From Candidatus Rhodoblastus alkanivorans (lineage in GTDB: Bacteria; Pseudomonadota; Alphaproteobacteria; Rhizobiales; Beijerinckiaceae), in assembly GCF_022760755.1 (NCBI RefSeq), contig NZ_JAIVFP010000001.1, positions 1,344,001 to 1,408,000 of the forward strand: a stretch of DNA of 64,000 bases, written 5' to 3'. The notes under the pieces are model-generated. The model had not been told where the DNA came from. It made no database searches and saw only the letters and a list, made by a program, of their open reading frames with translations. Shown here piece by piece: positions 14,727 to 55,808 of this stretch (its first letter is position 1; each line of letters opens with the position of its first letter). Position numbers and translations under genes: made by a program.

Positions 14727-15599
14727 ATGTCTTTGAAGAAAAGCTTGGCGGCGATGGCGTGCGGTTGCCTTTCGCTTTGCGCGGCGACGACGGCGTCCTT
14801 CGCGAATTCGGGTATCCAGCCCGGCATTACGACCGGCATTCCGCTCGGCGCGGCGCCGCCGGAAGGCGTCTATATCGTCCAGCTCCCGAACTATGGCTAC
14901 CGCGACGCGAATCCCGGGCAGAATGTCGGCGCGATCGTCCCGGCATGGCTCATCTGGTCGACGCCCTGGACAATTCTCGGCGCCCATATCGTGCTCGACG
15001 CAGCCTCGCCGATGGCCAATGTCAATGTCCACAACGTCCTGAACCGGGGCGGTTTCGCCAATCCGATCGTCGACGTTCAGTTTAAATGGAATCTCGGCAA
15101 CGGCTTTTTCGGCGGCTTTCAGACCGGCGTTTATCTGCCGGTGAAAGACGAACTAAGCATACTTGGCATTCCGCGCGATTTCGCCATGTTCCAGGCCCTT
15201 GGCGCGCTGAGCTATCTGAAGGACGGCTGGGATCTTTCGGCGACAGCGATTTACGGCACTGGCCGGTCCGGCGACATCTACAGTGAGCCCGGTTCCTATG
15301 CTCCCAACTGGTTCAACCTCGACCTCACGGCGACGAAGACATTCGGCAAATTCGAGGTCGGTTTCGTCGGCTTCGGTTCGGCGGACCTCGACGCGCCGGT
15401 TCCCGGCTATGCGAAGCAGAGCCAGATCGCGCTCGGCGGCCTTGTCGGCTACAATTTCGGTGTCCTGAACTTCCAGTTCAAATTGACGCGCGACGTCATG
15501 GAGCAAAATTACGGCGGCTACGATACCCGGGGATGGGCCAATATCACCATCCCGCTTTGGGTCGCCGCGCCGCCGGCCCCGGTTGTCGCCAAATATTGA
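14727..15599 (+). CDS. MetA-pathway outer-membrane transporter, paralogue 1
   Basis: 290 residues with a Sec signal peptide ([20 protein letters not shown], cleavage near TTASFA-NS). The mature part is rich in alternating aromatic strands ([49 protein letters not shown]) ending in an aromatic residue after [13 protein letters not shown], typical of the phenol meta-pathway porin-like family thought to carry hydrophobic aromatics across the outer membrane. Two paralogues of exactly the same length occur at 40545 and 48425. GGAGGGGGAGA precedes the start. It leads the dmpF-dmpG pair. Confidence 0.82.
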
Positions 15600-15610
15600 A
15601 TCGATTGAAC

Positions 15611-15642
15611 GAGAACGGCGCGGCTCCATCCGCGCCGTTCTC
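15611..15642 (+). terminator. Strong hairpin after porin 1
   Basis: A 13-bp perfect stem GAGAACGGCGCGG / CCGCGCCGTTCTC with a CTCCAT loop, 11 bp after the porin stop. It separates the porin transcript from the dmpFG promoter. Confidence 0.75.
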
Positions 15643-15688
15643 CGTTTGGGCGCCCTGGCGACGGCGAATGGACCTCCAGAATTCCGAA

Positions 15689-15703
15689 ATACCCGGCAGG
15701 TAT
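15689..15703 (+). promoter_or_regulatory. LysR-type box ATAC-N7-GTAT upstream of dmpF
   Basis: ATACCCGGCAGGTAT is an inverted repeat of the CatR/ClcR class, about 105 bp upstream of dmpF. Near-identical boxes lie at 18805 and 24605. The likely binder is the LysR protein encoded at 17820-18719. Confidence 0.65.
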
Positions 15704-15807
15704 CGAAAGGTTCGTCAAACGGTATTGGATGGCTGTCCGCCGTTTCAATAATTTCGCCGCTCGCTCCTCTGGTGCGGATCGAGGAAACGTTTCGAGGTAC
15801 GGGCGTC

Positions 15808-16722
15808 ATGAACAAAGTCAAATGCGCGCTGATCGGCTCCGGCAATATCGGGACCGATCTGATCTATAAATTGCGTCGCAGCTCGGTGCTTGAACCGGTG
15901 TGGATGGTCGGCGTCGACCCCGCTTCGGAGGGTCTCGCGCGCGCGCGCGATCTCGGACTGAAGACGACCGCCGAGGGCGTCGACGGCCTGCTGCCTCATG
16001 TCGCCGAAGATGGCGTGCAGATCGCCTTCGACGCCACCAGCGCCTATGTCCATGCGGAAAACAGCCGCAAGCTCAACGAGCTGGGCGTGCTGATGATCGA
16101 TCTGACGCCGGCCGCGATCGGGCCTTTGTGCGTGCCGCCGGTCAATCTGGCGGAGCACGCCGCCAAGCTCGAAATGAACGTCAACATGATCTCCTGCGCC
16201 GGACAGGCAACCATTCCGATCGTCAACGCCGTTTCGCGCGTTCAGGCCGTCGAATATGCCGAGATCATCGCCAGCCTGTCGTCGAAATCCGTGGGCCCAG
16301 GCACGCGCGCCAATCTCGACGAATTCACCTACACGACCTCGGGCGCCATCGAACGCATCGGCGGCGCGCGCAAGGGCAAGGCGATCGCCATCATCAATCC
16401 GGCCGAGCCGCCGATGATCATGCGCAACACCATCTATTGCCTCACGGACGAAGCGCCGAAACAGGCGGAGCTGACGGACTCCATTCTCGCCATGATCGGC
16501 GAAGTGCAGAAATATGTCCCGGGCTATCGCCTGGTGAACGGCCCGATCTATGACGGCCATCGCGTTGCGGTGTTCATGGAGGTCGCGGGCCTTGGCGATT
16601 ATCTGCCGAAATACGCCGGCAATCTCGACATCATGACTGCGGCCGCGACCCGCACCGCCGAAATGTTCGCCGAGGAAATCCTCTCCGGCAAGATCCGTCT
16701 CGAACCGAAGAGGGCCGCATGA
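15808..16722 (+). CDS. dmpF: Acetaldehyde dehydrogenase (acylating)
   Basis: 304 residues. Converts acetaldehyde or propanal, NAD and CoA to acyl-CoA at the end of the meta-cleavage pathway, receiving the aldehyde from the partner aldolase through a channel. The N-terminal nucleotide site is GSGNIGTDL and the catalytic cysteine lies in [24 protein letters not shown] is also family-typical. Its stop overlaps the dmpG start (ATGA), consistent with the obligate DmpFG complex. Cluster 2 has a clearly diverged paralogue at 51988. Confidence 0.95.
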
Positions 16723-17777
16723 TGAGCCACGAAAATTCCCTCAAGGGACGCAAGATCGTCGTTCACGACATGACTTTGCGCGACGGCATGCACGCCAAGC
16801 GCGAGCAGATCAGCGTCGCGCAGATGGCGGCGGTCGCGACCGGGCTCGACGCCGCGGGCGTGCCGCTCCTTCAGGTCACGCATGGCGCGGGCCTTGGCGG
16901 AAATTCGTTGCAGCACGGCCGCGCGCCGCACAGCAATGAAGACTATATTTCCGCGGTCGCGCCGAAGCTGAAACAGGCCAAAGTGTCGGTGCTGCTCATT
17001 CCCGGCCTCGGCACGATGCAGGAATTGCAATCAGCTTATGATTGCGGCGCGCGGGCGGTCCATTGCGCCACCCATTGCACCGAGGCCGACACGGCGCGCC
17101 AGCATATCGCCTTTGGCCGCAAGCTCGGGATGGACACCGCCGGCTTCCTGATGATGTCGCACCTCAACACGCCGGAGGGCATCGTCGAGCAGGGCCTTTT
17201 GATGGAATCCTATGGCGCCAATATCGTCTATGTCACGGATTCCGCCGGCTACATGCTGCCCGAAGACGTGCGCGCGCGCATCGCCCGGCTGCGCGACGCG
17301 CTGAAGCCCGAGACCGAAATCGGCTTCCATGGTCATCATAATCTCGGCATGGGGATCGCCAATTCGCTCGCCGCCGTCGAAATGGGCGCGACGCGGATCG
17401 ACGTTTCCTCCGCGGGACTCGGCGCGGGCGCCGGCAACACGCCGCTGGAAGTTTTCGTCGCCGTCTGCGACCGAATGGGGATCGAGACGGGATGCGATCT
17501 TTTCCGGTTGATGGATGTGGCCGAGGATATCGTCGTCCCGATGATGGATCATCAGGTGCGGATCGATCGCGATTCTCTCACGCTCGGGTTCGCCGGCGTC
17601 TATTCGACCTTCCTGCTGCACGCCAAGCGGGCGGCGGAGCGCACCGGGGTTCCCGCGCGCGACATTCTGGTCGAGCTTGGACGCAAGAAGATGATTGGCG
17701 GCCAGGAGGACATGATCGAGGACACCGCCTTGACCATGGCGAAAGAGCGCGGCGCGGCGTCGAAGAACGCCGCGTGA
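16719..17777 (+). CDS. dmpG: 4-hydroxy-2-oxovalerate aldolase
   Basis: 352 residues; cleaves 4-hydroxy-2-oxovalerate to pyruvate and acetaldehyde with a divalent metal. The HMGL-like TIM-barrel start [16 protein letters not shown] carries the metal-binding Asp and catalytic Arg, and [14 protein letters not shown] supplies the metal-binding histidines; the C-terminal segment is the DmpG communication domain. The start overlaps the dmpF stop by four bases; a second Met follows immediately. The gene ends at a strong hairpin shared with the convergent LysR gene. Confidence 0.95.
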
Positions 17778-18819: not shown

Positions 18820-18906
18820 CGTGTTGCGACTGGAAAAGTATTTTTTTTCAGCGCGGGAATGGTCCATCCTCCAACCTAACGAATGCCAAAATGGCCGAGG
18901 GGAAGG

Positions 18907-19290
18907 ATGGAGACGAACGGGGAGCGCGGCGCCCGCGACGCCGCAAACGGCAGCGCGTCCGTGTCGGTGACGATTGCCGAGACGGGCGAAACATTTCTCA
19001 ACGATTCGCGTCACAGCATTCTTGAAAGCATGCGCCGCCTCGGCAAGCGTGGCGTCCCCGTGGGCTGCCGCAGCGGCGGCTGCTCGGTCTGCAAGATCGA
19101 GATCCTACAAGGATCGTGGCGGCAATGCCGGCCGATGAGCCGCGAATATGTCTCCGACGATGATCTTGACGCGGGCCGCGTGCTCGCCTGCTGCATCGCG
19201 CCGACGGAGAACATGATCTTGCGGGTTCTTGGCAAGATGCGCAAAGCGCTTGAACGGCCGTCGCCAGCCAAGACGGAACATCAACAATAG
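18907..19290 (+). CDS. dmpQ: Plant-type 2Fe-2S ferredoxin, DmpQ/XylT family
   Basis: 127 residues. Proteins of this family re-reduce the iron of catechol 2,3-dioxygenase after oxidative inactivation by substituted catechols. The cluster ligands are in CRSGGCSVC and the later ACCIAP. The N-terminal 20 residues are an Ala/Gly-rich extension. GGAAGG sits just before the start, and the dioxygenase begins 10 bp after the stop, the normal dmpQB order. The cluster 2 counterpart (56741) has a different N-terminus and moderate similarity. Confidence 0.88.
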   Translation: METNGERGARDAANGSASVSVTIAETGETFLNDSRHSILESMRRLGKRGVPVGCRSGGCSVCKIEILQGSWRQCRPMSREYVSDDDLDAGRVLACCIAPTENMILRVLGKMRKALERPSPAKTEHQQ

Positions 19291-19300: not shown

Positions 19301-20230
19301 ATGGCTATCAACGGCGTTTTGCGGCCTGGACACGCGCAGTTGCGCGCGCTGAATCTCGAAGAGGACGTCAAGTTCTATCGCGACGTGCTTGGTCTCGTCG
19401 AAATGGGGCGCGACTCTTACGGCCGGGTTTATTTCAAGGCCTGGGACGAACGCGATCACCATAGCCTCGTCCTGCGTCAGGCCGATCGCGCCGGCATCGA
19501 TCTTTTCGCCTTCAAGGTCGACAGCCTGGCGACGCTCGACAAGCTCGAAAAGGATCTCAACGCCTATGGCGTCGCTACCAATAGAATCCCGGCGGGCGAG
19601 ATGCTCAACACCGGCGAGCGCGTAAGCTTCGAGATTCCGAACGGTCATATGATCGAACTTTTTGCCGAGAAAAAGGATGTCGGCAACGGCCTCGGCTACA
19701 GCAATCCGGCGCCCTGGAACAAACAGGCGGAAACAGGCATCGCCCCGACCCGGATGGATCACGCCTTGCTGGGCGGGATCGATCTCGACGGCGCGCGCGA
19801 CATTTTCGTCAATGTGCTGGGCTTCTATCTGACCGAAGACGTCATTGCCGAAGACGGCAAGACCCAGATCGCGGTTTGGCTGTCCTGCTCCAACAAAACC
19901 CATGACATCGCCTTCGTGCGCGCGCCGGAAAACGGCAAGCTGCACCATGTCTCCTATTGGATCGAGACTTGGGAAAAGGTGCTGCGCGCGGCCGACATCA
20001 TGTCGATGAACGACGTGCCCGTCGATATCGGTCCGACCCGCCACGGCATCACGCGCGGCGCGACGATCTACGCCTTCGACCGTTCCGGCAACCGCTTCGA
20101 GACTTTCGCCGGCGGCTATATCTCCTATCCCGACATGCATCCGCTGACCTGGCCGATCCAACATCTGCCGGAAGGCCTCGATTATGCGCAGCGTAAGCTG
20201 CACGAATCCTTCCTCACGGTTTTCAGCTGA
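19301..20230 (+). CDS. dmpB: Catechol 2,3-dioxygenase (extradiol)
   Basis: 309 residues; ring-opens catechol or methylcatechol to 2-hydroxymuconic semialdehyde using Fe(II). Two vicinal-oxygen-chelate halves are visible. The iron ligands sit in MDHALLGG, HHVSYWIE and the final glutamate of NRFETFAGGY; RHGITRGATIYAFD is the family signature. GGAGTG lies 7 bases before the ATG. Cluster 2 encodes a diverged 306-residue version, so the host may have two enzymes with different ring-substituent tolerance. Confidence 0.95.
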   Translation: MAINGVLRPGHAQLRALNLEEDVKFYRDVLGLVEMGRDSYGRVYFKAWDERDHHSLVLRQADRAGIDLFAFKVDSLATLDKLEKDLNAYGVATNRIPAGEMLNTGERVSFEIPNGHMIELFAEKKDVGNGLGYSNPAPWNKQAETGIAPTRMDHALLGGIDLDGARDIFVNVLGFYLTEDVIAEDGKTQIAVWLSCSNKTHDIAFVRAPENGKLHHVSYWIETWEKVLRAADIMSMNDVPVDIGPTRHGITRGATIYAFDRSGNRFETFAGGYISYPDMHPLTWPIQHLPEGLDYAQRKLHESFLTVFS

Positions 20231-20277
20231 TTTCGCTCCCGGAATTCGCCTCCCACGGATCCGGGCTTTGTGCGAAA

Positions 20278-20303
20278 GCGTCCGGCGCTCATGCGCCGGA
20301 CGC
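20278..20303 (+). terminator. Hairpin inside the operon between dmpB and dmpC
   Basis: An 11-bp perfect stem GCGTCCGGCGC / GCGCCGGACGC with a TCAT loop, followed by CATCCTTCTTGTTT. It could cause partial termination or protect the upstream mRNA end so that the dioxygenase is made in excess. Confidence 0.6.
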
Positions 20304-20341
20304 CATCCTTCTTGTTTCCCGTAGAGCAAAGCTTTCCGTCA

Positions 20342-21799
20342 ATGCTGCAGATCAGGAATTTCATCGACGGCGCATTCGTCGATGGCGCCGAAGGGAAAAC
20401 CTTCGCGAAGCGCTCCCCATTGGACAATCGCGTGATCGGCGAGGTCGCCGAAGCCGGCCGCGCGGATGTGGACCGGGCGGTCGCGGCCGGTCGGCGCGCC
20501 GTGAAAGGGCCATGGAAAAAACTCAAGCTCGAAGATCGTGTCGATCTGCTCTATGCGCTCGCCGATGAAATGACGCGGCGCTTCGATGATTTCGTCGCCG
20601 CGGAAAGTTCGGATACCGGCATGCCGCTCGCCACCGCGCGTCACATGTGCGCGCGTGGCGCCGCCAATTTCAAGATTTTCGCCGACGTCGTCAAAAATGT
20701 CCCGAGCGAGTTCTTCGAAATGGCGACGCCGGACGGCGCCGGCGCGATCAATTATGCGCTGCGCCGTCCCGTCGGCGTCGTCGGCGTCGTCTGTCCGTGG
20801 AACGCGCCGCTGCTGTTGATGACCTGGAAGGTCGGCCCCGCACTGGCCTGCGGCGACGCCGTCGTCGTGAAGCCGTCGGAAGAAACGCCGCAAACCGCCG
20901 CCTTGCTTGGCGAGGCGATGAACACGGTCGGCATTCCGGCGGGCGTCTACAATGTGGTGCACGGCTTCGGTCCGGGTTCAGCGGGCGAATTCGTCACCAC
21001 CCACCCGGGAATTTCCGCCATCACCTTCACCGGCGAAACGCGCACCGGCGCGGCGATCATGAAGGCCGCGGCGGACGGCGCCCGTCCGGTCTCGCTGGAA
21101 ATGGGCGGCAAGAACACCGCGATCATTTTCGCCGACGCCGATCTCGACAAGGCGGTCGAAGGAACGATGCGGTCGTGCTTCCTGAACACCGGCCAGGTCT
21201 GCCTGGGCACGGAGCGCGTCCTCGTCGAGCGCCCGTTCTTCGATACTTTTGTCGCCGCCCTGAAGGACGCGGTCGGCAAGCTGAAGATCGGCCCGCCGGA
21301 CGACCCCGGGGCGGCCATGGGCCCGCTGATTTCCCTGGAACATCGTGAAAAGGTTCTGTCCTATTACCGCAAGGCGGTCGAAGAGGGCGCCAATGTCGTG
21401 ATCGGCGGGCGCGCGCTGGAAATGCCGGGAGAGCTGAACAAGGGCGCCTGGGTCCAGCCGACCATCTGGACCGGCCTGCCCGACACGGCCTCAGTCTGGA
21501 ACGACGAAATCTTTGGCCCGTGCTGCCACATATCGCCTTTCGACACGGAGGAAGAGGCGATTGAACGCGCCAACGCCACGCAATACGGCCTCTCCAGCGC
21601 CATCTGGACGCGCGATCTCGCCCGCGCGCACCGCGTCGCGGCGGAAGTCGAGGCCGGCGTCGTCTGGGTCAATTCCTGGTTCCTGCGCGATCTGCGCACG
21701 GCCTTCGGCGGCATGAAAAATTCCGGAATCGGCCGCGAGGGCGGGGTCCATTCTCTCGAATTCTACACCGAGCTGAAAAATGTCTGTGTCAAACTCTGA
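20342..21799 (+). CDS. dmpC: 2-Hydroxymuconic semialdehyde dehydrogenase
   Basis: 485 residues, standard length. Oxidises 2-hydroxymuconic semialdehyde to 4-oxalocrotonate with NAD, the entry to the dehydrogenative branch. ALDH motifs are complete: the LEMGGKN glutamate and the catalytic cysteine in NTGQVCLGTERV. I chose MLQIRNFIDGAFVDG as the start, since upstream codons run into the hairpin. The end overlaps dmpE by 20 bp. The cluster 2 paralogue at 53734 has an N-terminal extension. Confidence 0.95.
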   Translation: MLQIRNFIDGAFVDGAEGKTFAKRSPLDNRVIGEVAEAGRADVDRAVAAGRRAVKGPWKKLKLEDRVDLLYALADEMTRRFDDFVAAESSDTGMPLATARHMCARGAANFKIFADVVKNVPSEFFEMATPDGAGAINYALRRPVGVVGVVCPWNAPLLLMTWKVGPALACGDAVVVKPSEETPQTAALLGEAMNTVGIPAGVYNVVHGFGPGSAGEFVTTHPGISAITFTGETRTGAAIMKAAADGARPVSLEMGGKNTAIIFADADLDKAVEGTMRSCFLNTGQVCLGTERVLVERPFFDTFVAALKDAVGKLKIGPPDDPGAAMGPLISLEHREKVLSYYRKAVEEGANVVIGGRALEMPGELNKGAWVQPTIWTGLPDTASVWNDEIFGPCCHISPFDTEEEAIERANATQYGLSSAIWTRDLARAHRVAAEVEAGVVWVNSWFLRDLRTAFGGMKNSGIGREGGVHSLEFYTELKNVCVKL

Positions 21800-22571
21800 T
21801 CTCATCGCGGCGCTCGGCGACGAACTGCACCAGGCGCTCGTGGCGCGCCGAACCATTGCGCCGCTTTCGGGGCGCGGCCACGGCCTGACGATCGAACACG
21901 CCTATCGCATTCAGGAACGTATGCTGTCGCATCGCATCGCCGCCGGCCAGAAAGTCGTAGGCAAGAAAGTCGGCGCGACCTCGGCGGCGGTTCAGAACCT
22001 CCTCAAGGTCGATCAGCCGGATTTCGGTCTTCTGCTCTCCGACATGATCTATAACGAGGGCGAGACGATTCCGATGAGCCGGCTGATCCAGCCCAAGGCC
22101 GAAGGCGAAATCGCCTTCATGCTGAAGCGCGATCTGCGCGGGCCAGGCGTGACAATGGCTGACGTCATCGCCGCGACCGAATGCGTCATGCCGTGTTTCG
22201 AGATCGTCGACAGCCGCATCGACGACTGGAAGATCGGGATTGTCGACACCGTCGCGGACAACGCCTCCTGTGGGGTGTTCGCGCTTGGCGGAACGGCGCG
22301 CGATCCGAAAAAGGTCGATCTCGAATTGTGCGGGATGGTCCTTGAAAGGAACGGCGATGTGGCCGCGACCGGCGCCGGCGCCGCGGCCCTCGGCCATCCG
22401 GCCAGCGCGGTCGCCTGGCTCGCCAATACACTTGGCCGTTTGGGCATTCCGCTGCTGGCGGGCGAGGTCATCCTGTCCGGCTCGCTGGCGACGCTTGTTT
22501 CCGTTTCCGCTGGCGATCATTTGCGCGTTTCCATCGGGGGCCTGGGCGAGTGCTCGGTCCGTTTCACGTGA
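21780..22571 (+). CDS. dmpE: 2-Oxopent-4-enoate hydratase
   Basis: 263 residues; hydrates 2-hydroxypenta-2,4-dienoate to 4-hydroxy-2-oxovalerate with a divalent metal. Family features include KVVGKKVGATSAAVQ, the metal-binding EGEIAFMLKRDL and EIVDSRIDDWKI. It starts 20 bp inside dmpC, suggesting translational coupling. It is a paralogue of the neighbouring dmpH, which has EPEIAFVLDK at the same place; the order E then H is typical. Confidence 0.93.
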   Translation: MSVSNSDLIAALGDELHQALVARRTIAPLSGRGHGLTIEHAYRIQERMLSHRIAAGQKVVGKKVGATSAAVQNLLKVDQPDFGLLLSDMIYNEGETIPMSRLIQPKAEGEIAFMLKRDLRGPGVTMADVIAATECVMPCFEIVDSRIDDWKIGIVDTVADNASCGVFALGGTARDPKKVDLELCGMVLERNGDVAATGAGAAALGHPASAVAWLANTLGRLGIPLLAGEVILSGSLATLVSVSAGDHLRVSIGGLGECSVRFT

Positions 22572-22580: not shown

Positions 22581-23369
22581 ATGGCTCTTGATAAGGATGC
22601 GGTCGGCGCCCTCGCGGAATATCTCGAAACGGCTGAGCTGGACGCGCGCGCCGTGCCGCAGATTTCCCTGCAACATCCCGGAATCACGGAAGACGACGGC
22701 TATGCGATCCAGCACGCGATTCGTCGGCGCAAGGAAGCGCGCGGCGTCAGGATCGTCGGGATCAAGGCCGGCCTGACTTCCCGGGCGAAGATGAAGCAGG
22801 TCGGCGTCGATCGGCCCTCGTATGGCTTTCTTGCTGATTATTTCGCGGTCAACGACGGCGCGCGGATTCCGATCGAGCAATTGATCCATCCGCGCGTCGA
22901 GCCCGAGATCGCTTTCGTGCTCGACAAGCCGCTCGAAGGCCCGGGTTGCCACATTGGCGCGGTTTTGGCCGCGACCGATTTCGTCCTGCCGGCGCTGGAA
23001 GTGATCGACAGCCGTTATGAGAATTTCAAATTCGATTTCCCGAGCGTGGTCGCCGATAATTCCTCGTCCTCACGCTTTGTGCTCGGCGGCCGATGCCGGC
23101 CGCTCGAAGACCTCGACCTTCGCACGATCGGGCTCGTCCTGGAAAAGAACGGCGCGCCTTTCGCGTTTGGCGCCGGCGCGGCGGTGCTCGGTCATCCGGC
23201 GGCGGCCGTCGCAATGGTCGTCAATCTGCTCGCCCGGCGCGGCGAGGGCCTGCCGGCGGGCGCCCTGGTTATGACGGGCGGCGCGACGGAAGCGGTATCC
23301 GTCGCGGCGGGCGATTTCGTTCAATTGCGCGCCCAGAATCTGGGCTCGGTTTCCGTGGGTTTCGCTTGA
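22581..23369 (+). CDS. dmpH: 4-Oxalocrotonate decarboxylase
   Basis: 262 residues; decarboxylates 2-oxo-3-hexenedioate to 2-hydroxypentadienoate, working in complex with the hydratase. Distinguishing features against DmpE are [30 protein letters not shown] and EVIDSRYENFKFDFPSVVAD. It is 9 bp after dmpE. The cluster 2 homologue at 50184 is diverged but shows the same [10 protein letters not shown] and [16 protein letters not shown] segments. Confidence 0.92.
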   Translation: MALDKDAVGALAEYLETAELDARAVPQISLQHPGITEDDGYAIQHAIRRRKEARGVRIVGIKAGLTSRAKMKQVGVDRPSYGFLADYFAVNDGARIPIEQLIHPRVEPEIAFVLDKPLEGPGCHIGAVLAATDFVLPALEVIDSRYENFKFDFPSVVADNSSSSRFVLGGRCRPLEDLDLRTIGLVLEKNGAPFAFGAGAAVLGHPAAAVAMVVNLLARRGEGLPAGALVMTGGATEAVSVAAGDFVQLRAQNLGSVSVGFA

Positions 23370-23370: not shown

Positions 23371-24132
23371 ATGACGACGCGCTTCGACGACGAACTGGCG
23401 GTGGTGACCGGCGCGAGCGGCGGTTTCGGCAAGGTCATTGTCGCAAGCCTTGCGGCGCGCGGCCTGACCGTGATCGCCATAGGACGGCGGCTCGAAGAAC
23501 TGGAGATGGTGGCGCACGACATCGCCAACGTCCGGCCCTGCGCCGCCGACATCGGCCTCGACAGCTCCATCGCGACGATCGCGGCGGCGCTGGACGGGCC
23601 GGTTCGCGCGATTGTCCACGCTCCCGGCCTTCCTTTCGCGGGCGGCGTTCTCGACGCCGCTCCCGGCGCGCTCGCCGAAGCGGTGAACATCAAGGCGGGC
23701 GGCTTCCTTCGCCTGGCCCGGGCGGCCGATGCCCGGCTGGCCGGCGGCGCGCGTCTGATCGGAATTGGCGGCCATTATGGTCTCGAACCGACCGCTTATG
23801 CGACCTCGGCGAGCGTCGGCAACGCAGCTTTGATCGCCCTGTCCCGCCAGTTGAGTCTGGCCTATGGACCGCGCCGCGTGACGAGCCATGTCATCGCGCC
23901 GGGGCCCGCGGACACGGAGCGTCTGCGCAAGGTGGCGGCGCCCCGGGCGGAAAAGGCCGGCCGAACCGTGGACGACGTGCTCGCCGACATGCAGGCCGAA
24001 TCCTCGCTCGGCGCCTTCACCACGCCAGAGCAGGTCGCCTGGGCGGTGACCATGCTCCTTGATCCGGAAGCGGACGCAATGACCGGTTCGACGCTGATGC
24101 TCGATTCCGGCCGACGCCGCGGCTTGCCATAG
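23371..24132 (+). CDS. SDR-fold protein lacking the catalytic lysine
   Basis: 253 residues with a short-chain dehydrogenase N-terminus (VVTGASGGFGKVIVASLAARG) and a Rossmann layout throughout. The active-site region reads RLIGIGGHYGLEPTAYATSA: the Tyr is present but the Lys four residues on (YxxxK) is Ala, and the usual serine before it is not obvious. It may therefore not be a standard oxidoreductase. It begins 1 bp after dmpH and is followed by the fused tautomerase, so it is clearly an operon member. An SDR in a classical dmp operon is unusual; its role is unknown. Confidence 0.78.
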   Translation: MTTRFDDELAVVTGASGGFGKVIVASLAARGLTVIAIGRRLEELEMVAHDIANVRPCAADIGLDSSIATIAAALDGPVRAIVHAPGLPFAGGVLDAAPGALAEAVNIKAGGFLRLARAADARLAGGARLIGIGGHYGLEPTAYATSASVGNAALIALSRQLSLAYGPRRVTSHVIAPGPADTERLRKVAAPRAEKAGRTVDDVLADMQAESSLGAFTTPEQVAWAVTMLLDPEADAMTGSTLMLDSGRRRGLP

Positions 24133-24155: not shown

Positions 24156-24593
24156 ATGCCGGTTGCTCACATTCATCTGCTGAAAGGTCACAGCCGCGTC
24201 GTGCTGCGTACAATCATCGCCAAGGTCACCGAGGCGATGAGCCGGGTCCTCAACGCTCCAAAAGAAAGATTCATGGTCTGGGTCACCGAGATCGATCCGG
24301 AGCTCTGGGGCATCGAAGGCCGTCCGGCGAGCGAGGCCCTCACCGCCCAGGATCGCAACTCGGTCGAAATGCCCTTCGTCGAAATGGTTTTGATGGAAGG
24401 CCGACCGCTCGCGCAATATCACGCCGTGATCGAGGAGGTCAGCGCCGCAATCGCCGAGGCGCTGCAATCGGACAGGTCGCGCGTCCGCGTCCATCTGGTC
24501 CAGGCGCAGCCGGATTATTGGGGCATTGGCGGCGTTCCTTACAGCATCCTGCGGGCGGACGAAATCGCCGCGCGTTTGCGGGCCACGGCCTGA
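24156..24593 (+). CDS. Fused double-domain 4-oxalocrotonate tautomerase-like protein
   Basis: 145 residues made of two 4-OT-like units where the normal enzyme has one of about 62. Unit 1 begins MPVAHIHLLKGHS, so it keeps the catalytic Pro1 after Met removal, but aligned position 11 is His and position 39 is Met. Unit 2 begins at internal Met72-Pro73 (MPFVEMVLMEGR) and has both arginines (Arg83 and Arg111, equivalent to Arg11 and Arg39), but its proline cannot be a free N-terminus. Both keep a WGI-G motif near the hydrophobic active-site wall. It stands where dmpI is expected, so it probably interconverts 2-hydroxymuconate and 4-oxalocrotonate. Cluster 2 has a normal 65-residue 4-OT. Confidence 0.88.
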   Translation: MPVAHIHLLKGHSRVVLRTIIAKVTEAMSRVLNAPKERFMVWVTEIDPELWGIEGRPASEALTAQDRNSVEMPFVEMVLMEGRPLAQYHAVIEEVSAAIAEALQSDRSRVRVHLVQAQPDYWGIGGVPYSILRADEIAARLRATA

Positions 24594-24702: not shown

Positions 24703-25008
24703 ATGGCGGCTCCAGACGCCGGCGCGGGCGCGCCGGGGCGCGAGTCTTTCTGCGGGCGAAAGACGCAAGGCGGGGCCTTTGCGCGGATCCTTGGCGTCCG
24801 GCTCGGCCGCTTCGTCGAATTCGAGTTCTTTCTGGACGACGGCCTTCTCTCCGTCGAACTGATCCTGCCGCTGGACGCCTTTCACGAATTCTGTCGCGAG
24901 CAAATGGCGGAGATCCTGCCGCCGTCAGACGTGCAAACAGCATCGGACATCGAACGTCTGGCATGGCGGGAAAAACAGCCCGGATTGCTCCGTCCAAGGC
25001 AAGAATAA
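24703..25008 (+). CDS. dmpK: Phenol hydroxylase assembly protein (P0), copy 1
   Basis: 101 residues, DmpK/PoxA-like. In the Pseudomonas system this small protein binds the oxygenase and helps load iron but is not part of the turnover complex. The core RLGRFVEFEFFLDDGLLSVE then LILPLDAFHEFC and the C-terminal AWREKQPGLLRPRQE match the family. The N-terminal 28 residues are extra and variable. Unlike dmpL and dmpM, this gene is strongly diverged from its cluster 2 partner, and the near-identical tract starts after its stop. Confidence 0.85.
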   Translation: MAAPDAGAGAPGRESFCGRKTQGGAFARILGVRLGRFVEFEFFLDDGLLSVELILPLDAFHEFCREQMAEILPPSDVQTASDIERLAWREKQPGLLRPRQE

Positions 25009-25032
25009 AACAAGGACTTAGGGAGGAATGCA

Positions 25033-26025
25033 ATGACGGTTCAGATCAAGACGATAGACATGGAGCCGAAGCGTCAGACGTTTGGCCATGTCGCCCGGCG
25101 GCTGGGCGCCGACAAGCCGGCGACGCGCTATCAGGAGGCGACGCTCGACGTTCAGGCGACCGCGAATTTTCATTACAAGCCTTTGTGGGAGCCGGAATAT
25201 TGGGTTTACGACACGCGCAAGACCGCGGTCGTCATGGAGGACTGGTACAAGCCGCTCGATCCTAGGCAGTTCTATTACGCCACCTATAATATTTCGCGCG
25301 CCAATATGAACCAGTCGGCCGAGCGCGCCTTCGTCTTCGCCGAGGAGCGCGGCCTCATCGAGAAGATTTCGCCCGAGGCGCGCAAGCAGATCGAGACTTT
25401 TCTCCTGCCTTTGCGCCACCTGCATTGGGGCGCCAATATGAACATGACCGAGATCGCCCAGCGCGGCTATGGCGCGGCGGTGACCGCGCCCTGCATTTTC
25501 TCCGCCGGCGATCATCTCGGCATGGCCCAGATCGTCAGCCGCATCGGCCTCCTGCTCGACGGCCAGACCGGCGTGAGCCTCGACATGGCCAAGGAAGTCT
25601 GGATCAACGATCCCGCCTGGCAGGGCGTGCGCAAGCTGATCGAGGACTCGCTTGTCGAGCGCGATTTCTTCCAGCTCTTCGTCGCCCAGACCCTCGCGAT
25701 CAACGGCGTCGTCTTCGACCTCGTCTACAAAATGTCCGACGCCGCCTGGAAGGACGCGCCGATCACGGTCGCCATGCTGACCGAATTCATGAGCGACTGG
25801 CGCGCCGACGAAAGCAAGTGGAGCGACAGCGTCATCAAGACGGTCGCCGCCGAAAGCCCGGAGAACAAGGCGCTGGTTTCGCAATGGGCGGCGGAGTGGA
25901 TTTCGCGCGCGGTCGAGGCGGCCAAGCCGCTTTCGGCGGCGATGCTCGGCGACAATGGCGCGCTTGCCGAAGCGGCCGGCGACGCCGTCAAGGCGCGCGC
26001 GAAAAACCTCGGCCTGACGCTCTGA
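25033..26025 (+). CDS. dmpL: Phenol hydroxylase beta subunit (P1), copy 1
   Basis: 330 residues; structural beta subunit of the (alpha-beta-gamma)2 hydroxylase, ferritin-like without a diiron site. The conserved N-terminal RQTFGHVARRLGADKPATRY, the YWVYDTRKTAVVMEDWYKPL block and the WGANMNMTEIAQRGYGAAVT region identify it. GGGAGG lies 7 bases before the ATG. The product is identical to that of the cluster 2 copy. Confidence 0.95.
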   Translation: MTVQIKTIDMEPKRQTFGHVARRLGADKPATRYQEATLDVQATANFHYKPLWEPEYWVYDTRKTAVVMEDWYKPLDPRQFYYATYNISRANMNQSAERAFVFAEERGLIEKISPEARKQIETFLLPLRHLHWGANMNMTEIAQRGYGAAVTAPCIFSAGDHLGMAQIVSRIGLLLDGQTGVSLDMAKEVWINDPAWQGVRKLIEDSLVERDFFQLFVAQTLAINGVVFDLVYKMSDAAWKDAPITVAMLTEFMSDWRADESKWSDSVIKTVAAESPENKALVSQWAAEWISRAVEAAKPLSAAMLGDNGALAEAAGDAVKARAKNLGLTL

Positions 26026-26039
26026 GAGGAAGAAGAACA

Positions 26040-26312
26040 ATGTCGCAACTCGCGTCTCTCACCCTTTACCACAATGACGAAGCCCGCCCGATCATCGAGG
26101 CGATCATCGCCGACAATCCCGGCGTGCGCGTCCTCAACATGCCCGGCGCCGTGAAGCTCGACTGCGAGGGCGCGCTCGTCGTCAAGCGCGCCTCGGTCGA
26201 GGAGCGCCTCGGGCGCGAATGGGACCCGCAGGAAATCCACCTCGTGCTCATCTCGATGGCCGGCCATCTCGACGAGGACGACGACCAATTTTCCGTGAGC
26301 TGGAAACACTGA
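26040..26312 (+). CDS. dmpM: Phenol hydroxylase regulatory/coupling protein (P2), copy 1
   Basis: 90 residues; the cofactor-free effector protein that docks over the diiron site and tunes oxygen activation (MmoB/T4moD family). The sequence starts MSQLASLTLYHNDEARPIIE and ends in an acidic tail (MAGHLDEDDDQFSVSWKH). AGAGGAAGAAG precedes the start, 14 bp after dmpL. It is identical in both operons. Confidence 0.93.
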   Translation: MSQLASLTLYHNDEARPIIEAIIADNPGVRVLNMPGAVKLDCEGALVVKRASVEERLGREWDPQEIHLVLISMAGHLDEDDDQFSVSWKH

Positions 26313-26326
26313 TCCGGGAGGAAACG

Positions 26327-27844
26327 ATGACCGCCAAAAAACTCGGCCTCAAGCAGCGCTACGCCCATATGACGCGCGGGCTGGACTGGGAAACCAGCTA
26401 CCAGCCGATCGACAAGGTTTTCCCCTACGACCAGTTCGAGGGCATCAAGATCAAGGACTGGTCGGCCTGGGAAGACCCGTTCCGTCTGACCATGGACGCC
26501 TATTGGAAATTCCAGGCGGAGAAAGAGCGCAAGCTCTATGCGGTGCTCGACGCCTTCGCCCAGAACAACGGCCAGACCGGCATTTCCGATGGGCGTTATA
26601 TGAACGTCCTGAAACTCTTCCTCACCGGCATTTCGCCGGAGGAATATCAGTCGCATCGCGGCTTCGCCTTTATTGGCCGTCATTTGCGCGGCGTCGGCCC
26701 GCGCGTCGCGGCGCAGCAGCAATCGCTCGATGAGCTGCGCCATGTCCAGACGCAGATCCACACCATCAGCCATTACAACAAGTTTTTCAATGGCATGTCG
26801 GAATTTCCGACGATGCATGACCGCGTCTTCTATCTGTCGGTGCCGAAGAGCTTCTTCGACGACGCCCGGTCGGCGGGTCCGTTCGAATATATGATCGCGA
26901 TCGGCTTCGCCTTCGAATATGTGCTGACCAATCTTCTGTTCGTGCCCTTCATGTCGGGCGCGGCCTATAATGGCGACATGTCCACGGTGACCTTCGGCTT
27001 CTCGGCGCAGTCCGACGAAAGCCGTCACATGACGCTCGGCATCGAAGTCATCAAGTTCCTGCTCGAACAGCACCCTGACAATCTGCCGATCGTGCAGAAA
27101 TGGGTCGACAAATGGTTCTGGCGCGGCTTCCGGCTGCTGGGCCTCGTCGCCATGATGATGGACTATATGCTGCCCAAGCCGGTGATGTCCTGGAAGGAAG
27201 CCTGGGAAATCTATTTCACCGAAGCCGGCGGCGCCCTGTTCCAGGATCTCGCCCGCTATGGCCTGAAAATGCCGAAATATCATGAGGTGGCGACCGAAGC
27301 CGCTGAACATGTCGGTCATCAGCTCTATGGCCTGCTTTACCAGCTTTGCCACGTCGCCGGCCTTCACGCATGGATGCCGGACGCCAAGCATATGGACTGG
27401 CTGTCGGAGAAATATCCCAACACTTTCGACAAATATTACCGGCCGCGCTTCGAAATGTGGGCGCAGATGGAAAAAGAGGGCAAGCGCTTCTATTACAATG
27501 GCCTGCTCCAACTTTGCCACACCTGCCAGCTGCCCATGACTTTCACCGAGCCGGGCGACCCCACGACGCGCTGCTTCCGTGAAACGCAGTTCAAGGGCAA
27601 CCGCTATCATTTCTGCTCGGACGGCTGCAAAGACATCTTCGACAACGAGCCGGAGAAATATGTTCAGGCCTGGCTCCCGATCCAGCAGATCTTCCAGGGC
27701 AATTGCGGCGGCCCGACGGTGCCGGACGTCCTGAACTGGTACCAGATCAAGGTTGGGGTCGATAACGCCGAATATGTCGGCTCGGAAGATCACAAGCTTT
27801 GGGAATCCTGGAAACAGGACACGGCGGTCAGCAAGGCCGGCTAA
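26327..27844 (+). CDS. dmpN: Phenol hydroxylase alpha (diiron) subunit (P3), copy 1
   Basis: 505 residues; catalytic subunit that hydroxylates phenol or cresol to catechols. Diiron ligands are visible: Glu106, Glu136 and His139 (DELRH), then Glu197, Glu231 and His234 (DESRH). The C-terminal half has Cys-rich segments (CHTCQLPM, CSDGCKDIF) characteristic of DmpN. GGGAGGAAACG precedes the start. Against copy 2 the gene is a mosaic: codons 1-94 are identical, about 95-174 diverge (including the first half-site), 175-267 are nearly identical, and residues about 310-345 diverge strongly. Confidence 0.95.
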   Translation: MTAKKLGLKQRYAHMTRGLDWETSYQPIDKVFPYDQFEGIKIKDWSAWEDPFRLTMDAYWKFQAEKERKLYAVLDAFAQNNGQTGISDGRYMNVLKLFLTGISPEEYQSHRGFAFIGRHLRGVGPRVAAQQQSLDELRHVQTQIHTISHYNKFFNGMSEFPTMHDRVFYLSVPKSFFDDARSAGPFEYMIAIGFAFEYVLTNLLFVPFMSGAAYNGDMSTVTFGFSAQSDESRHMTLGIEVIKFLLEQHPDNLPIVQKWVDKWFWRGFRLLGLVAMMMDYMLPKPVMSWKEAWEIYFTEAGGALFQDLARYGLKMPKYHEVATEAAEHVGHQLYGLLYQLCHVAGLHAWMPDAKHMDWLSEKYPNTFDKYYRPRFEMWAQMEKEGKRFYYNGLLQLCHTCQLPMTFTEPGDPTTRCFRETQFKGNRYHFCSDGCKDIFDNEPEKYVQAWLPIQQIFQGNCGGPTVPDVLNWYQIKVGVDNAEYVGSEDHKLWESWKQDTAVSKAG

Positions 27845-27906
27845 GGGGATATATGGGGCGGCGACCGGTCTTGCGGCGGACGTCGCCCGGCGCTCGGGAG
27901 GAAACA

Positions 27907-28272
27907 ATGGCTTTGAAAGCAATCACGCCCGATTATGAGAAATATACCGAAAACCGGGACCTGCCGGAGCTCTATCACGGCAATCTGATGATCTATGTCC
28001 ATTGGGAGCATCATATATCATTCGTCGCCGCGATCGCATTGCCGCTTCCGCCGCAGACGCCCTTCGGCGCCATCAAGGAAGCTATCGGCGGCGTCTACGG
28101 ACCGCATCCGGATTGGGCGAAGATCGATTGGTCGCACGCGATCTGGAAAATCGACGGCAAAAATGCGACGCCCGATTTCGACAAGTCCATCGCCGACCAC
28201 GGCATGGGACACAAGTCGCTGGTGCGCTTCTGGACGCCCGGCCTGGACGGCTATCATGGCAGTCTGAACTAA
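27907..28272 (+). CDS. dmpO: Phenol hydroxylase gamma subunit (P4), copy 1
   Basis: 121 residues; small gamma subunit of the hydroxylase. ITPDYEKYTENRDLPELYHG, LPLPPQTPF and HKSLVRFWTPGLDGYHG are family-typical. CGGGAGGAAACA precedes the start. Only about half of the residues match the cluster 2 copy, unlike the flanking dmpP gene, so this gene has escaped homogenisation or was replaced. Confidence 0.9.
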   Translation: MALKAITPDYEKYTENRDLPELYHGNLMIYVHWEHHISFVAAIALPLPPQTPFGAIKEAIGGVYGPHPDWAKIDWSHAIWKIDGKNATPDFDKSIADHGMGHKSLVRFWTPGLDGYHGSLN

Positions 28273-28290
28273 GGCCTTTGGCGTCGAGCG

Positions 28291-29355
28291 ATGATTGTCC
28301 GCCAACTCACCATCGAACCCATCGGCGACGAGATCGAGGTCGCGGAAGGGCAGACCATACTGGACGCCTGTCTGCGTGCGGGCGTCTATCTCCCGCACGC
28401 CTGCGGACATGGCCTGTGCGGCACCTGCAAGACCCAGGTGCTCGACGGCGAGATCGATCACGGCGAAGCCTCGCCCTTCGCCTTGATGGATTTCGAGCGC
28501 GACGAGGGCTTCGTCCTCGCCTGCACCGCGACGCTGAAAAGCGATGTCGCCATCGAGGCCGATGTCGAGGACGATCCCGACGCCCGCAGGATTCCGGTGC
28601 GCGATTTCGTCGGCGAAGTGGTCGCGCTGGACGACCTCACCCATGACGTGAAAGGCGTGCGCCTCGCCTTGCGGGACGGCCCGATCGATTTCCAGGCCGG
28701 GCAATATGTCAATGTCTTCCTGCCGGGGATCGAGGCCTCGCGCGCCTTTTCCATCGCCAATCCCCCCTCCGACAGCGGCCATGTCGAATTGCAGATCCGC
28801 CGCGTGCCGGGGGGCGAGGCGACGGGCTATGTCCACGAGAGATTGCAGCTTGGCGACAAGCTGAAGATCACCGGGCCGCAGGGCCGTTTCATCGTGCGCA
28901 AATCGCGCGGCGGGCCGCTGCTGTTCCTGGCCGGCGGCACCGGCGTCTCCAGCCCGCGATCGATGATCCTCGACCTGCTCGAAGAGGGCTATGCCGAGCC
29001 GATCACGCTCGTCCACGGCGTGCGCGCGCAAGCCGATCTTTATGGCCGCGACGAGTTCGAGGCGCTGGCGCGAAGCCACGACAATTTCCACTATGCGCCG
29101 GCTTTGTCGCATGAGCCCGAACCGAGCGAATGGCGCGGCGACCGCGGCTTTGTGCACGATGTCGCCAAGAGGATTTTCGGCGGCGTGTTCGAAGGTTCGA
29201 CCGCCTATCTCTGCGGCCCGCCGCCGATGATCGAGGCATGCATCGCGACCCTGATGCAGGGCCGCCTGTTTGAAAAGCACATTTTCACCGAGCGCTTCTT
29301 CACCGCCAAGGATTGCGCGGAGAAGCCCAAAAGCCCCGTGTTCAAGAGGCTGTGA
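28291..29355 (+). CDS. dmpP: Phenol hydroxylase NADH reductase (P5), copy 1
   Basis: 354 residues; passes electrons from NADH via FAD and an N-terminal 2Fe-2S cluster to the hydroxylase. Ferredoxin cysteines are CGHGLCGTC and LACTA, FAD binding is RAFSIANPP, and the nucleotide domain has FLAGGTGVSSPRSM and the terminal YLCGPPPMIEAC. The protein matches the cluster 2 copy except for a few residues at the N-terminus (MIVRQ against MSVHQ). Confidence 0.95.
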   Translation: MIVRQLTIEPIGDEIEVAEGQTILDACLRAGVYLPHACGHGLCGTCKTQVLDGEIDHGEASPFALMDFERDEGFVLACTATLKSDVAIEADVEDDPDARRIPVRDFVGEVVALDDLTHDVKGVRLALRDGPIDFQAGQYVNVFLPGIEASRAFSIANPPSDSGHVELQIRRVPGGEATGYVHERLQLGDKLKITGPQGRFIVRKSRGGPLLFLAGGTGVSSPRSMILDLLEEGYAEPITLVHGVRAQADLYGRDEFEALARSHDNFHYAPALSHEPEPSEWRGDRGFVHDVAKRIFGGVFEGSTAYLCGPPPMIEACIATLMQGRLFEKHIFTERFFTAKDCAEKPKSPVFKRL

Positions 29356-49982: not shown

Positions 49983-50180
49983 TCAGGTCTTGGCGGCAGT
50001 CTTGCTCTTGGCGACGCCCCCGACGCTGAAATGAGCGCCCGGGACTTCGCGAAGGATGACGCGAATCGATTCGATCGGCGCGTCGAGCGCTTCATGAACC
50101 GCCTGGGCGACCTTGGCGTGGAGGCGCTCCTTGGCGGCGTTGGAGCGGCCTTCGATGAGCGTGATTTCGACAACGGGCAT
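49983..50180 (-). CDS. dmpI: 4-Oxalocrotonate tautomerase
   Basis: 65 residues, normal single-domain enzyme. After Met removal Pro1 is the catalytic base, with Arg11 (IEGRS) and Arg39 (ESIRVI) present and the HFSVGG loop near the hydrophobic wall. It tautomerises 2-hydroxymuconate to 2-oxo-3-hexenedioate. It follows dmpH. Compare the fused version at 24156. Confidence 0.93.
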   Translation of the reverse strand: MPVVEITLIEGRSNAAKERLHAKVAQAVHEALDAPIESIRVILREVPGAHFSVGGVAKSKTAAKT

Positions 50181-50183: not shown

Positions 50184-50948
50184 TTACTCCGCAACGCGAA
50201 TGGAGACGGAACCGAGCTTTTGCATGGTAGTGCGGACATGCTCGCCGACACTCAGGGGATGGGCGGCGGTGGCGCCGCCGGCCAGCACGATCCAGCCCGG
50301 TTTCAGGCCGCCGATGGACGAGGCGGCGCGCGCCGCGGCGACCAGCGAGCGGATCGGATGGCCGAGTATCGCCGCGGTTGAACCGATCTGAACCGCGCGT
50401 CCGTTCACTTCCACAACAATGCCGAGATTGGAGAAGTCCTGATCGGGTTTGCTCCAACCGCCGACAATGAATCCCGACGACGACGAGTTGTCAGCGATGA
50501 CGTCCGGCAGGGCGAATTTGAAATCGCGATAGCGCGAGTCGATGACTTCCATCGCTGGCGCGATCGCCTCGACCGCGCTGAGCGCTTCAGCCGGTGAAAC
50601 TTCACCGACGAGTTCGCGCTTCATCAGGAAAGCGAGCTCCGGTTCGATGCGCGGGTGGACGTAACGCTTCTTCGAAAGCGCGCCGCCTTCCTCCAGCCGC
50701 ATGGTGTCGGTGAGCCGGCCCCAGATCACTTCACTGACGCCGACCTGCGCCATTTTCGCGCGCGAGGTCAGGCCCATTTTCACGCCGACGAGTTTCTCGC
50801 CGCGCGCGAAACGGCGCTCCATCGACAAGGCCTGAATCGCATAGGCCTCCTCGACGCCAAGCGGCTCGCGCTCGGTGAATTGGGGAATGGCGCCCGCGCT
50901 GCGGGCGGCCTCGTCGACGATCTGGGCGTATTGGGCCAGCTTGCTCAT
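50184..50948 (-). CDS. dmpH: 4-Oxalocrotonate decarboxylase, cluster 2
   Basis: 254 residues. Diagnostic segments are [20 protein letters not shown], the metal-binding [12 protein letters not shown] and [20 protein letters not shown]. It overlaps dmpG by 4 bp and precedes dmpI by 3 bp, tight coupling. Moderately similar to the cluster 1 enzyme. Confidence 0.9.
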
Positions 50949-52929: not shown

Positions 52930-52932
52930 CCT

Positions 52933-53721: not shown

Positions 53722-53733
53722 TGAATTCTCCGA

Positions 53734-55245: not shown

Positions 55246-55323
55246 GCGTCCTCTCCTCGAACCGCTCAACCGACCGTCTCCGACGCTGGCCGGCGCGTGA
55301 GCCGCCTCTTCCTGCCACAAAAA

Positions 55324-55358: not shown

Positions 55359-55372
55359 GAGGGCGATCGGCC

Positions 55373-55804: not shown

Positions 55805-55808
55805 GCCC

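What the first reader, a model, noticed from the sequence alone, without database searches (positions are those of the whole stretch)
24156..24593. Fused tautomerase with catalytic residues split between its two halves
The protein is two 4-OT units in one chain. Unit 1 keeps the free N-terminal Pro1 but has His at position 11 and Met at 39. Unit 2 keeps Arg11 (Arg83) and Arg39 (Arg111), but its proline (Pro73) is internal. Neither half alone looks competent, yet together they hold one full set, resembling heterohexameric tautomerases such as CaaD where Pro1 and the arginines come from different subunits. It replaces dmpI in cluster 1, while cluster 2 has a normal enzyme.
Basis: partly seen in the sequence, partly recalled or inferred. 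Interest (0 to 1): 0.78.

Follow-up and report, generated by a model that had tools for sequence, protein, structure and literature searches.

The report
Two-unit tautomerase in phenol breakdown
The gene makes a doubled form of a small, well-known enzyme of phenol breakdown; its catalytic parts are divided between the two halves as in other doubled enzymes of this family, and the less ordinary part is its usual partner, a dehydrogenase-like protein that has lost the usual catalytic residues.

Summary
In detail: 24156-24593 encodes two 4-OT-type units in one chain, with Pro1, His11, Met39 in unit 1 and an internal Pro, Arg11, Arg39 in unit 2. 'One complete set across two halves' is right but is the normal design of fused tautomerases: in published Linker 2 both arginines come from the second unit, and fused 4-OTs 6BLM, 6VVM and 6VVN also have His11 in unit 1. 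In 27 loci Pro1 and unit-2 Arg11/Arg39 never vary, while unit 1 drifts. Less ordinary: in 23 of 27 loci the gene lies directly beside an intact SDR-like gene whose catalytic Lys is replaced by Asn (26 of 26 readable rows). A short 4-OT is also present in 15 of 18 loci outside the window's clade and 0 of 8 within it; in 3 of 7 genomes of the clade no other Arg11/Arg39 tautomerase was found. Best reading: a one-site-per-chain 2-hydroxymuconate tautomerase that took over from DmpI in this clade. Trimer and activity are untested. New member of a known kind; the SDR link is the interesting part.

The parts
24156..24593 (+). fused tautomerase, 145 aa (P0001)
24159..24161 (+). Pro1 codon (P2 with Met), N-terminal if Met is removed
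   Evidence: 27 of 27 rows; Met removal inferred
24189..24191 (+). His11 of unit 1 (H12)
   Evidence: His also at this place in 6BLM, 6VVM, 6VVN
24273..24275 (+). Met39 of unit 1 (M40); Met or Gln in the window's clade (8 rows), Arg in the other 19
24372..24374 (+). internal proline of unit 2 (P73)
   Evidence: 27 of 27
24402..24404 (+). Arg11 of unit 2 (R83)
   Evidence: 27 of 27; aligned with the unit-2 Arg of 6BLM; taken as equivalent to Arg-71 of Linker 2 (PMC5818174)
24486..24488 (+). Arg39 of unit 2 (R111)
   Evidence: 27 of 27; aligned with the unit-2 Arg of 6BLM; taken as equivalent to Arg-99' of Linker 2 (PMC5818174)
24519..24521 (+). aromatic at position 50 of unit 2 (W122)
   Evidence: W 26, F 1 of 27
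24552..24575 (+). C-terminal RADEIAAR tail; R133 invariant, the rest partly conserved
   Evidence: R133 27 of 27, E136 22 of 27
23371..24132 (+). SDR-like partner, 253 aa, lacking the SDR catalytic Ser, Tyr and Lys
23821..23823 (+). Asn151 of the SDR-like protein, in the column of the SDR catalytic Lys
   Evidence: Asn in 26 of 26 readable rows (27 given); column from PDB alignments
18883..19290 (+). ferredoxin (DmpQ-like)
19301..20230 (+). catechol 2,3-dioxygenase
20270..21799 (+). 2-hydroxymuconic semialdehyde dehydrogenase
21780..22571 (+). 2-oxopent-4-enoate hydratase (DmpE)
22581..23369 (+). 2-oxo-3-hexenedioate decarboxylase (DmpH)
15583..16722 (+). acetaldehyde dehydrogenase (DmpF); the profile match begins at residue 76, so the true start is probably later
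16719..17777 (+). 4-hydroxy-2-oxovalerate aldolase (DmpG)
24703..29355 (+). phenol hydroxylase genes (DmpK 24703, DmpL 25033, DmpN 26219, DmpP 28291; DmpM- and DmpO-like ORFs between them)
49983..50180 (-). ordinary short 4-OT of cluster 2 (DmpI-like)
50184..56729 (-). rest of cluster 2: DmpH-like 50184, DmpG 50945, DmpF 51988, DmpE-like 52933, HMSD 53734, C23O 55809 (the DmpH- and DmpE-like genes stay below their equivalog cut-offs)

Best explanation
The protein is a fused 4-OT-type tautomerase that works as a homotrimer with one complete active site per chain: Pro1 (unit 1) is the base, Arg83 (unit 2, same chain) and Arg111 (unit 2 of a neighbouring chain) hold the two carboxylates, and Trp122 lines the pocket; the second, pseudo-symmetric site around Pro73 is dead because that proline is inside the chain and its would-be arginines are His12 and Met40. 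In cluster 1 it most likely converts 2-hydroxymuconate to 2-oxo-3-hexenedioate, the DmpI step, feeding DmpH, whose gene lies two genes upstream. It belongs to an SDR-linked lineage; in the window's clade the short DmpI is missing from the cluster and the fused enzyme has taken over. Shown here: two units, invariance of the set, genomic setting, no other Arg11/Arg39 tautomerase found in some genomes of the clade. Taken from the literature: which residues face each other. Inferred: trimer, activity, substrate, direction of the replacement.
For: Pro1 and unit-2 Arg11/Arg39 kept in 27 of 27 loci while unit 1 drifts. The fold model (pLDDT 81, pTM 0.74) matches fused 4-OTs best: 7puo, then 9hzi, 6blm, 6vvn, 6vvm, 6vvr. 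Published geometry and activity of Linker 2 and Fused 4-OT (PMC5818174). The gene lies in a phenol to acetyl-CoA cluster that is complete but for a short 4-OT. In the window's clade 0 of 8 loci hold a short 4-OT, against 15 of 18 outside it. Of the 7 genomes of this clade, all searched with PF01361 at E 0.001, three (G1482, G1424, G1405) show no other tautomerase with Arg11 and Arg39, although their clusters carry C23O, HMSD, DmpE, H, F and G.
Against: Four of the 7 genomes of the clade, the window's own among them, do hold another short 4-OT with Arg11 and Arg39, so the fused enzyme need not do the step there. Absence of the short gene and loss of unit-1 Arg39 each need one change on the tree and mark the same clade (22 of 26 rows were given a state for the first, 26 for the second; the tree was built with the trait columns in): one event, not a repeated correlation. 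In 15 of 18 loci outside the clade DmpI coexists with the fused gene, so another job may be ancestral. The invariant Arg37 of unit 1 (27 of 27) could also reach the site. On the ibuprofen plasmid pIBU218 a transposon mutant in the dioxygenase gene, which by gene order lies upstream of the pair, was restored by the dioxygenase alone (PMC9195938), so the pair may be dispensable there; a short 4-OT is present on that plasmid. Nothing about activity or trimer was measured.
Confidence: 0.6

Rival explanations
1. The fused tautomerase and its SDR-like neighbour form a two-step unit with a job of their own (for example isomerising a 2-oxo-3-enoate or a substituted 2-hydroxymuconate, then handling its conjugated double bond), while the cluster 2 DmpI supplies the ordinary 4-OT step.
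For: The pair is directly adjacent and in one piece in 23 of 27 loci. In two searches of 385 genomes of the class (apparently the same draw), a close SDR (E 7.9e-87 or better) occurs in all 4 genomes with a full-length fused gene of this lineage (E 4.9e-37 or better) and in 1 other (only the best 7-10 candidates per genome are scored). DmpI is also present in 15 of the 26 loci scanned. [quoted passage not shown]
Against: No substrate is known; the conserved arginines are those of a 2-hydroxymuconate tautomerase; three genomes of the clade show no other candidate for the 4-OT step. AerF is not singled out: it is second in the profile search and third by Foldseek at 23% identity, behind ordinary SDRs, and the best sequence match, 9fe6, has the Tyr and Lys. 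The SDR model is weak just around the site (mean pLDDT 75; residues 87-96 and 136-139 below 50). G439 has the SDR without a two-unit tautomerase.
Confidence: 0.28
2. The protein is a decaying duplicate or a binding protein without catalytic activity.
For: Unit 1 lacks Arg11 and Arg39; the genome keeps a normal short 4-OT.
Against: Purifying selection, dN/dS 0.03-0.39 in seven of eight pairs, the eighth saturated (none of the seven includes the window's own gene); the full set is invariant in 27 of 27 loci.
Confidence: 0.05
3. It is a CaaD- or cis-CaaD-like dehalogenase or hydratase.
For: In cis-CaaD, too, Pro1 and the arginines lie in different units (PMC5818174).
Against: By plain counting the place of cis-CaaD His-28 is Ser and the place of Glu-114 (13 columns after that of Arg-39 in the published alignment) is Ile124; Arg39 is kept as in 4-OT; the genes around it are for phenol and catechol.
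Confidence: 0.02

Closest known systems
Fused 4-OT (PDB 6BLM) and the fused 4-OTs 6VVM, 6VVN, 6VVR
   Same: two beta-alpha-beta units in one chain; Pro1 in unit 1; Arg11 and Arg39 equivalents in unit 2; in 6BLM, 6VVM and 6VVN also His at position 11 of unit 1 (6VVR was not printed)
   Different: 19-26% identity by Foldseek; 6BLM, 6VVM and 6VVN keep Arg39 in unit 1 where the window has Met; these chains (123-127 residues) end before the C-terminal RxxEIxAR-type tail of this lineage; their gene neighbourhoods were not examined
Fused tautomerase 8T9Q
   Same: two-unit chain of 149 residues, second-best match of the profile (E 1.4e-19)
   Different: Tyr at position 11 and Arg at 39 in unit 1; its paper was not seen
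Linker 2 (Pt0534, PDB 5UNQ)
   Same: both substrate-binding arginines come from the second unit; efficient with 2-hydroxymuconate (PMC5818174)
   Different: keeps Arg-39 in unit 1, lining the site; 20% identity
Short 4-OT / DmpI (for example 1BJP, 1OTF)
   Same: same fold, Pro1, Arg11, Arg39; presumably the same step of the meta-cleavage pathway
   Different: one unit per chain and hexameric; the window protein scores 53.2 bits against the DmpI equivalog cut-off of 70
CaaD heterohexamer
   Same: Pro1 and arginines from different units (recalled, and the finding's own comparison)
   Different: two separate chains; different reaction; in the profile search only its beta subunit is listed, weakly (E 5e-4), below the subunits of other heterohexamers (8T9O, 8T9P)
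Laboratory-made tandem fused 4-OT F11 (7PUO, 9HZI)
   Same: best structural match; also His at position 11 of unit 1
   Different: engineered and evolved for Michael additions (PMC9400869, passages)

Membership tests
Tautomerase superfamily | beta-alpha-beta unit of PF01361 | tested here: met
   two stretches, E 1.5e-20; model matches TSF structures
Tautomerase superfamily | proline directly after the start Met | tested here: met
   P2, 27 of 27 rows
Fused 4-OT | two 4-OT units in one chain | tested here: met
Fused 4-OT | Arg11 and Arg39 equivalents in the second unit | tested here: met
   R83 and R111, alignment to 6BLM, 27 of 27
Fused 4-OT | homotrimer | not testable with these tools
   single-chain modelling only
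Fused 4-OT | 2-hydroxymuconate tautomerase activity | not testable with these tools
   needs an assay
Short 4-OT / DmpI equivalog | single unit of about 60 residues | tested here: not met
   145 aa, two units
Short 4-OT / DmpI equivalog | NCBIfam NF041920 cut-off of 70 bits | tested here: not met
   53.2 bits; it does pass NF002524, TIGR00013 and NF002571. The test discriminates little: the ordinary short 4-OT of cluster 2 reaches only the NF002571 cut-off and does not list NF041920 at E 1e-12
CaaD | two separate subunits | tested here: not met
   one chain
Classical SDR (partner gene) | Gly-rich cofactor motif near the N-terminus | tested here: met
   G14, G17, G20 invariant in 9 of 9 rows
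Classical SDR (partner gene) | catalytic Tyr-x-x-x-Lys | tested here: not met
   Lys column Asn in 26 of 26 readable rows; Tyr column Ala 19, Pro 7 (columns)
AerF-type ene-reductase (partner gene) | GxEP...NAAL stretch with Asn in the Lys column, as in AerF 6JH7 (my own criterion from one alignment) | tested here: met
   residue alignment; Foldseek rank 3
AerF-type ene-reductase (partner gene) | NADPH-dependent reduction of a conjugated double bond | not testable with these tools
   needs an assay

The most novel reading that the evidence does not exclude
The fused tautomerase and an SDR protein without the SDR catalytic residues form a conserved two-enzyme unit of catechol meta-cleavage: the tautomerase sets up a conjugated 2-oxo-3-enoate and the SDR, working like AerF without Tyr/Lys acid catalysis, reduces or otherwise disposes of it (metabolite repair or a reductive branch), an unrecognised step in a textbook pathway. 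In one clade the tautomerase half also absorbed the DmpI job.
Probability: 0.18. Interest if true: 0.68.

Novelty: new member of a known kind. Interest (0 to 1): 0.38.

Why it matters
The split catalytic set is expected for fused tautomerases, so the protein does not change the picture of the family. It does give a natural case in which a fused 4-OT seems to have replaced the short DmpI within one pathway, with a surviving pseudo-site that can be read from sequence; and it exposes a conserved, unassigned SDR-like gene in phenol and catechol operons (also beside the tautomerase on two ibuprofen plasmids) whose role could be tested directly.

Tried and rejected
CaaD as the nearest model: dropped in favour of fused 4-OT trimers. 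'The fused gene arose as a replacement of dmpI': dropped for the lineage, because 15 of the 18 loci outside the window's clade hold a short 4-OT too. The HMM was built from nine short 4-OTs, six of them from the loci scanned, so it favours finding those; the absences in the clade are backed by the PF01361 searches of whole genomes. 'The SDR is an ordinary dehydrogenase': dropped, because the Tyr and Lys columns are lost. The control (an ORF of L110 that looks like a FabI-type Tyr-x6-Lys protein, recalled) was a poor stand-in for classical SDRs; the columns rest on the PDB alignments.

Results against the reading or dropped rows. Five other two-unit tautomerases (L009-L012, L046) have no such SDR in the 1.5 kb held on either side (only these five were checked). 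G439 has the SDR, cut by a contig end, with no tautomerase in the stretch after it (L127) and no profile match at E 1e-15. Hydrogenophaga sp. BPS33 has a frame-broken SDR, and no tautomerase was seen in the stretch read after it. L119 has the tautomerase with only an SDR fragment and none of the reference meta-cleavage genes in its 19 kb but a ferredoxin. L114 has both genes in one cluster but apart, L117 has a transporter gene between them, and L018 has an insertion sequence within the SDR gene; hence 23 of 27 adjacent and intact. L143 carries the same protein as L142 and was not counted. In the tree L051 sits on a long branch and L057 and L111 have odd composition; the place of L051 is unsure.

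Dead ends. In the phylum and family draws G546 and G1237 matched at E 4e-22; G546 proved to be two separate short genes (L058), and G1237, with the same coordinates and score, was taken to be the same and not read. G855 matched over one unit only. All three were left out.

Literature limits. The papers on 6VVM/6VVN/6VVR, 8T9Q, 7PUO and AerF did not come up in my searches and I did not try them by identifier; what is said of them comes from PDB titles, alignments, a review passage or a reference list. Ten paper searches brought up no discussion of this SDR-tautomerase pair. It does seem to appear uncommented in gene lists: Dechloromonas aromatica (144 aa tautomerase beside a 254 aa oxidoreductase; PMC2907700, passages) and Zoogloea oleivorans (SDR, then a second 4-oxalocrotonate tautomerase; PMC7012976, passages). 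Neither sequence was fetched; identity with this lineage is inferred from size and order.

Full report
What is there. The ORF at 24156-24593 (+) encodes 145 aa with two tautomerase units. Counted on the mature chain, unit 1 has Pro1, His11 and Met39; unit 2 has an internal proline (P73 with Met), Arg11 (R83) and Arg39 (R111).

Is the split unusual? No. PMC5818174 (introduction, the subgroup section and the 4-OT/cis-CaaD section read; [quoted passage not shown] Fused 4-OT and Linker 2 are proficient with 2-hydroxymuconate (23-fold and 2-fold below 4-OT in kcat/Km). The profile alignments printed show His at position 11 of unit 1 in 6BLM, 6VVM and 6VVN, with Arg39 kept. The AlphaFold model (two-row alignment; pLDDT 81, pTM 0.74) matches fused 4-OTs best. 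R11, R39 and F50 are named as key active-site residues of 4-OT in PMC11641302 (one passage); W122 stands at the place of F50. So the window protein follows the known design; among the positions named, only Met39 differs from those three.

Relatives. tblastn against plasmids matched 17 records, 5 of them over at least 80% of the protein: Sphaerotilus (49%), three Rhodococcus and one Stutzerimonas. Profile searches of genomes, one named contig (Ideonella livida, 47%) and a search with the SDR brought the set to 27 loci, the window included. In these, Pro1, the unit-2 proline, unit-2 Arg11, unit-2 Arg39 and unit-1 Arg37 are invariant, and position 50 of unit 2 is Trp 26 times and Phe once. Unit-1 position 39 is Arg in 19, Gln in 5 and Met in 3. 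The position-11 column of unit 1 is not reliable outside the window's clade, because most of those rows have an inserted residue beside it. dN/dS is 0.03-0.39 in seven of eight pairs, the eighth being saturated.

Setting. Cluster 1 is a phenol to acetyl-CoA set: ferredoxin, C23O, HMSD, DmpE, DmpH, SDR, fused tautomerase, phenol hydroxylase, with DmpF and DmpG upstream. Cluster 2 on the other strand has its own C23O, HMSD, DmpE-like, F, G, DmpH-like and a short 4-OT. At least part of the same meta-cleavage block lies around the fused gene in 25 of the 26 loci; L119 has none of its main enzymes.

DmpI and the fused gene. A scan of 26 loci for short 4-OTs (L142 not in it) gives 0 of 8 in the window's clade (window, L015, L052, L057, L111, L112, L113, L114) and 15 of 18 elsewhere: 12 on the same strand within the block, and L016, L018 and L051 nearby on the other strand (that of L018 a 39-residue match). 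The three without are L019 (short stretch; one lies about 7 kb upstream), L109 (contig end) and L119 (no meta-cleavage genes). On the tree the clade has support 97/92; absence of the short gene (22 of 26 rows given a state) and loss of unit-1 Arg39 (26 rows) each need one change and mark the same clade. This is one event and cannot show dependence. The seven genomes of the clade were searched with PF01361: G1482 has only the fused gene; G1424 and G1405 have one other protein each, without Arg11 and Arg39 by its sequence; G000, G810, G1057 and Ideonella have another short 4-OT with both. Completeness of G1482, G1424 and G1405 is not stated by the tool, and more distant tautomerases would be missed.

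The neighbour. An SDR-like gene lies directly upstream of the fused gene, in one piece, in 23 of 27 loci. The others are L114 (same cluster, apart), L117 (a transporter between), L018 (an insertion within it) and L119 (a fragment). In the 385 genomes drawn from the class, a close SDR (E 7.9e-87 or better, next best 1.3e-35) occurs in the 4 genomes with a full-length fused gene of this lineage and in G439, which has none at E 1e-15. In alignments with solved SDRs its catalytic Ser is Gly, Tyr is Ala and Lys is Asn; across 26 readable rows of 27 the Ser column is Gly, the Tyr column Ala 19 and Pro 7, and the Lys column Asn. Of the five PDB matches whose alignments are printed, AerF (6JH7) shares the GxEP...NAAL stretch; the best match, 9fe6, has the Tyr and Lys. 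[quoted passage not shown] By fold AerF ranks third, behind ordinary SDRs, at 23% identity, and the SDR model is weak around the site. This is a lead, not an assignment.

Published genetics. On pIBU218 a catechol 2,3-dioxygenase gene is followed by the SDR and the fused gene, and a short 4-OT lies in another cluster. A miniTn5 mutant in the dioxygenase gene ipfL was restored by ipfL alone, and the complementing region extends at most to the locus numbered next to ipfL, which by gene order should be the SDR, leaving the fused gene outside (PMC9195938, results and discussion sections read in part). That the ipfL of the paper is the gene before the SDR, and the match of locus numbers, are my inference from gene order; polarity was not tested there. 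It is weak evidence that the pair is not needed for growth on ibuprofen when a short 4-OT is present.

Verdict. A trimeric, one-site-per-chain fused 4-OT is well supported by family knowledge and conservation (about 0.9, my estimate); that it performs the DmpI step in cluster 1 is likely but unproven (0.6). A separate job together with the SDR is the main rival (0.28). As a finding about split catalytic residues it is ordinary; the conserved SDR-like partner is what deserves follow-up.

Noticed in passing
23371-24132: SDR-like gene without the SDR catalytic Ser, Tyr and Lys, usually next to the fused tautomerase in its relatives; function unassigned.
   Followed up: partly
31277-35865: A second di-iron monooxygenase set (PF02332 hydroxylase at 31277, MmoB/DmpM-like ORF at 33450, ferredoxin/reductase at 34501) lies after the phenol hydroxylase genes.
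   Followed up: no
10069-11811 (-) and 36158-37948 (+): Two XylR/DmpR-type sigma-54 activators lie on either side of the cluster 1 region.
   Followed up: no
12339-15599: A Rieske/VanA-type oxygenase (13385) with a ferredoxin-domain protein (12339), then an ORF of 290 aa (14727) with no NCBIfam or Pfam match at E 1e-5 that has a 47% identical relative beside dmpG in L057.
   Followed up: no
L142 8995-10185 and L143 5944-7134: The SDR-fused tautomerase pair directly follows catechol 2,3-dioxygenase on the plasmids pRW412a and pIBU218.
   Followed up: partly
L144 9001-9573 and L018 7869-9968: The SDR gene is frame-broken on a Hydrogenophaga plasmid and carries an insertion sequence in Rhodococcus pyridinivorans YF3.
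   Followed up: no
PDB 7PUO: A laboratory-evolved tandem fused 4-OT also has His at position 11 of its first unit, like three natural fused 4-OTs.
   Followed up: no
G000:C1:562957-563136 (L004): A further, more distant tautomerase-like protein, apparently of two units, elsewhere in the same genome (sequence).
   Followed up: no
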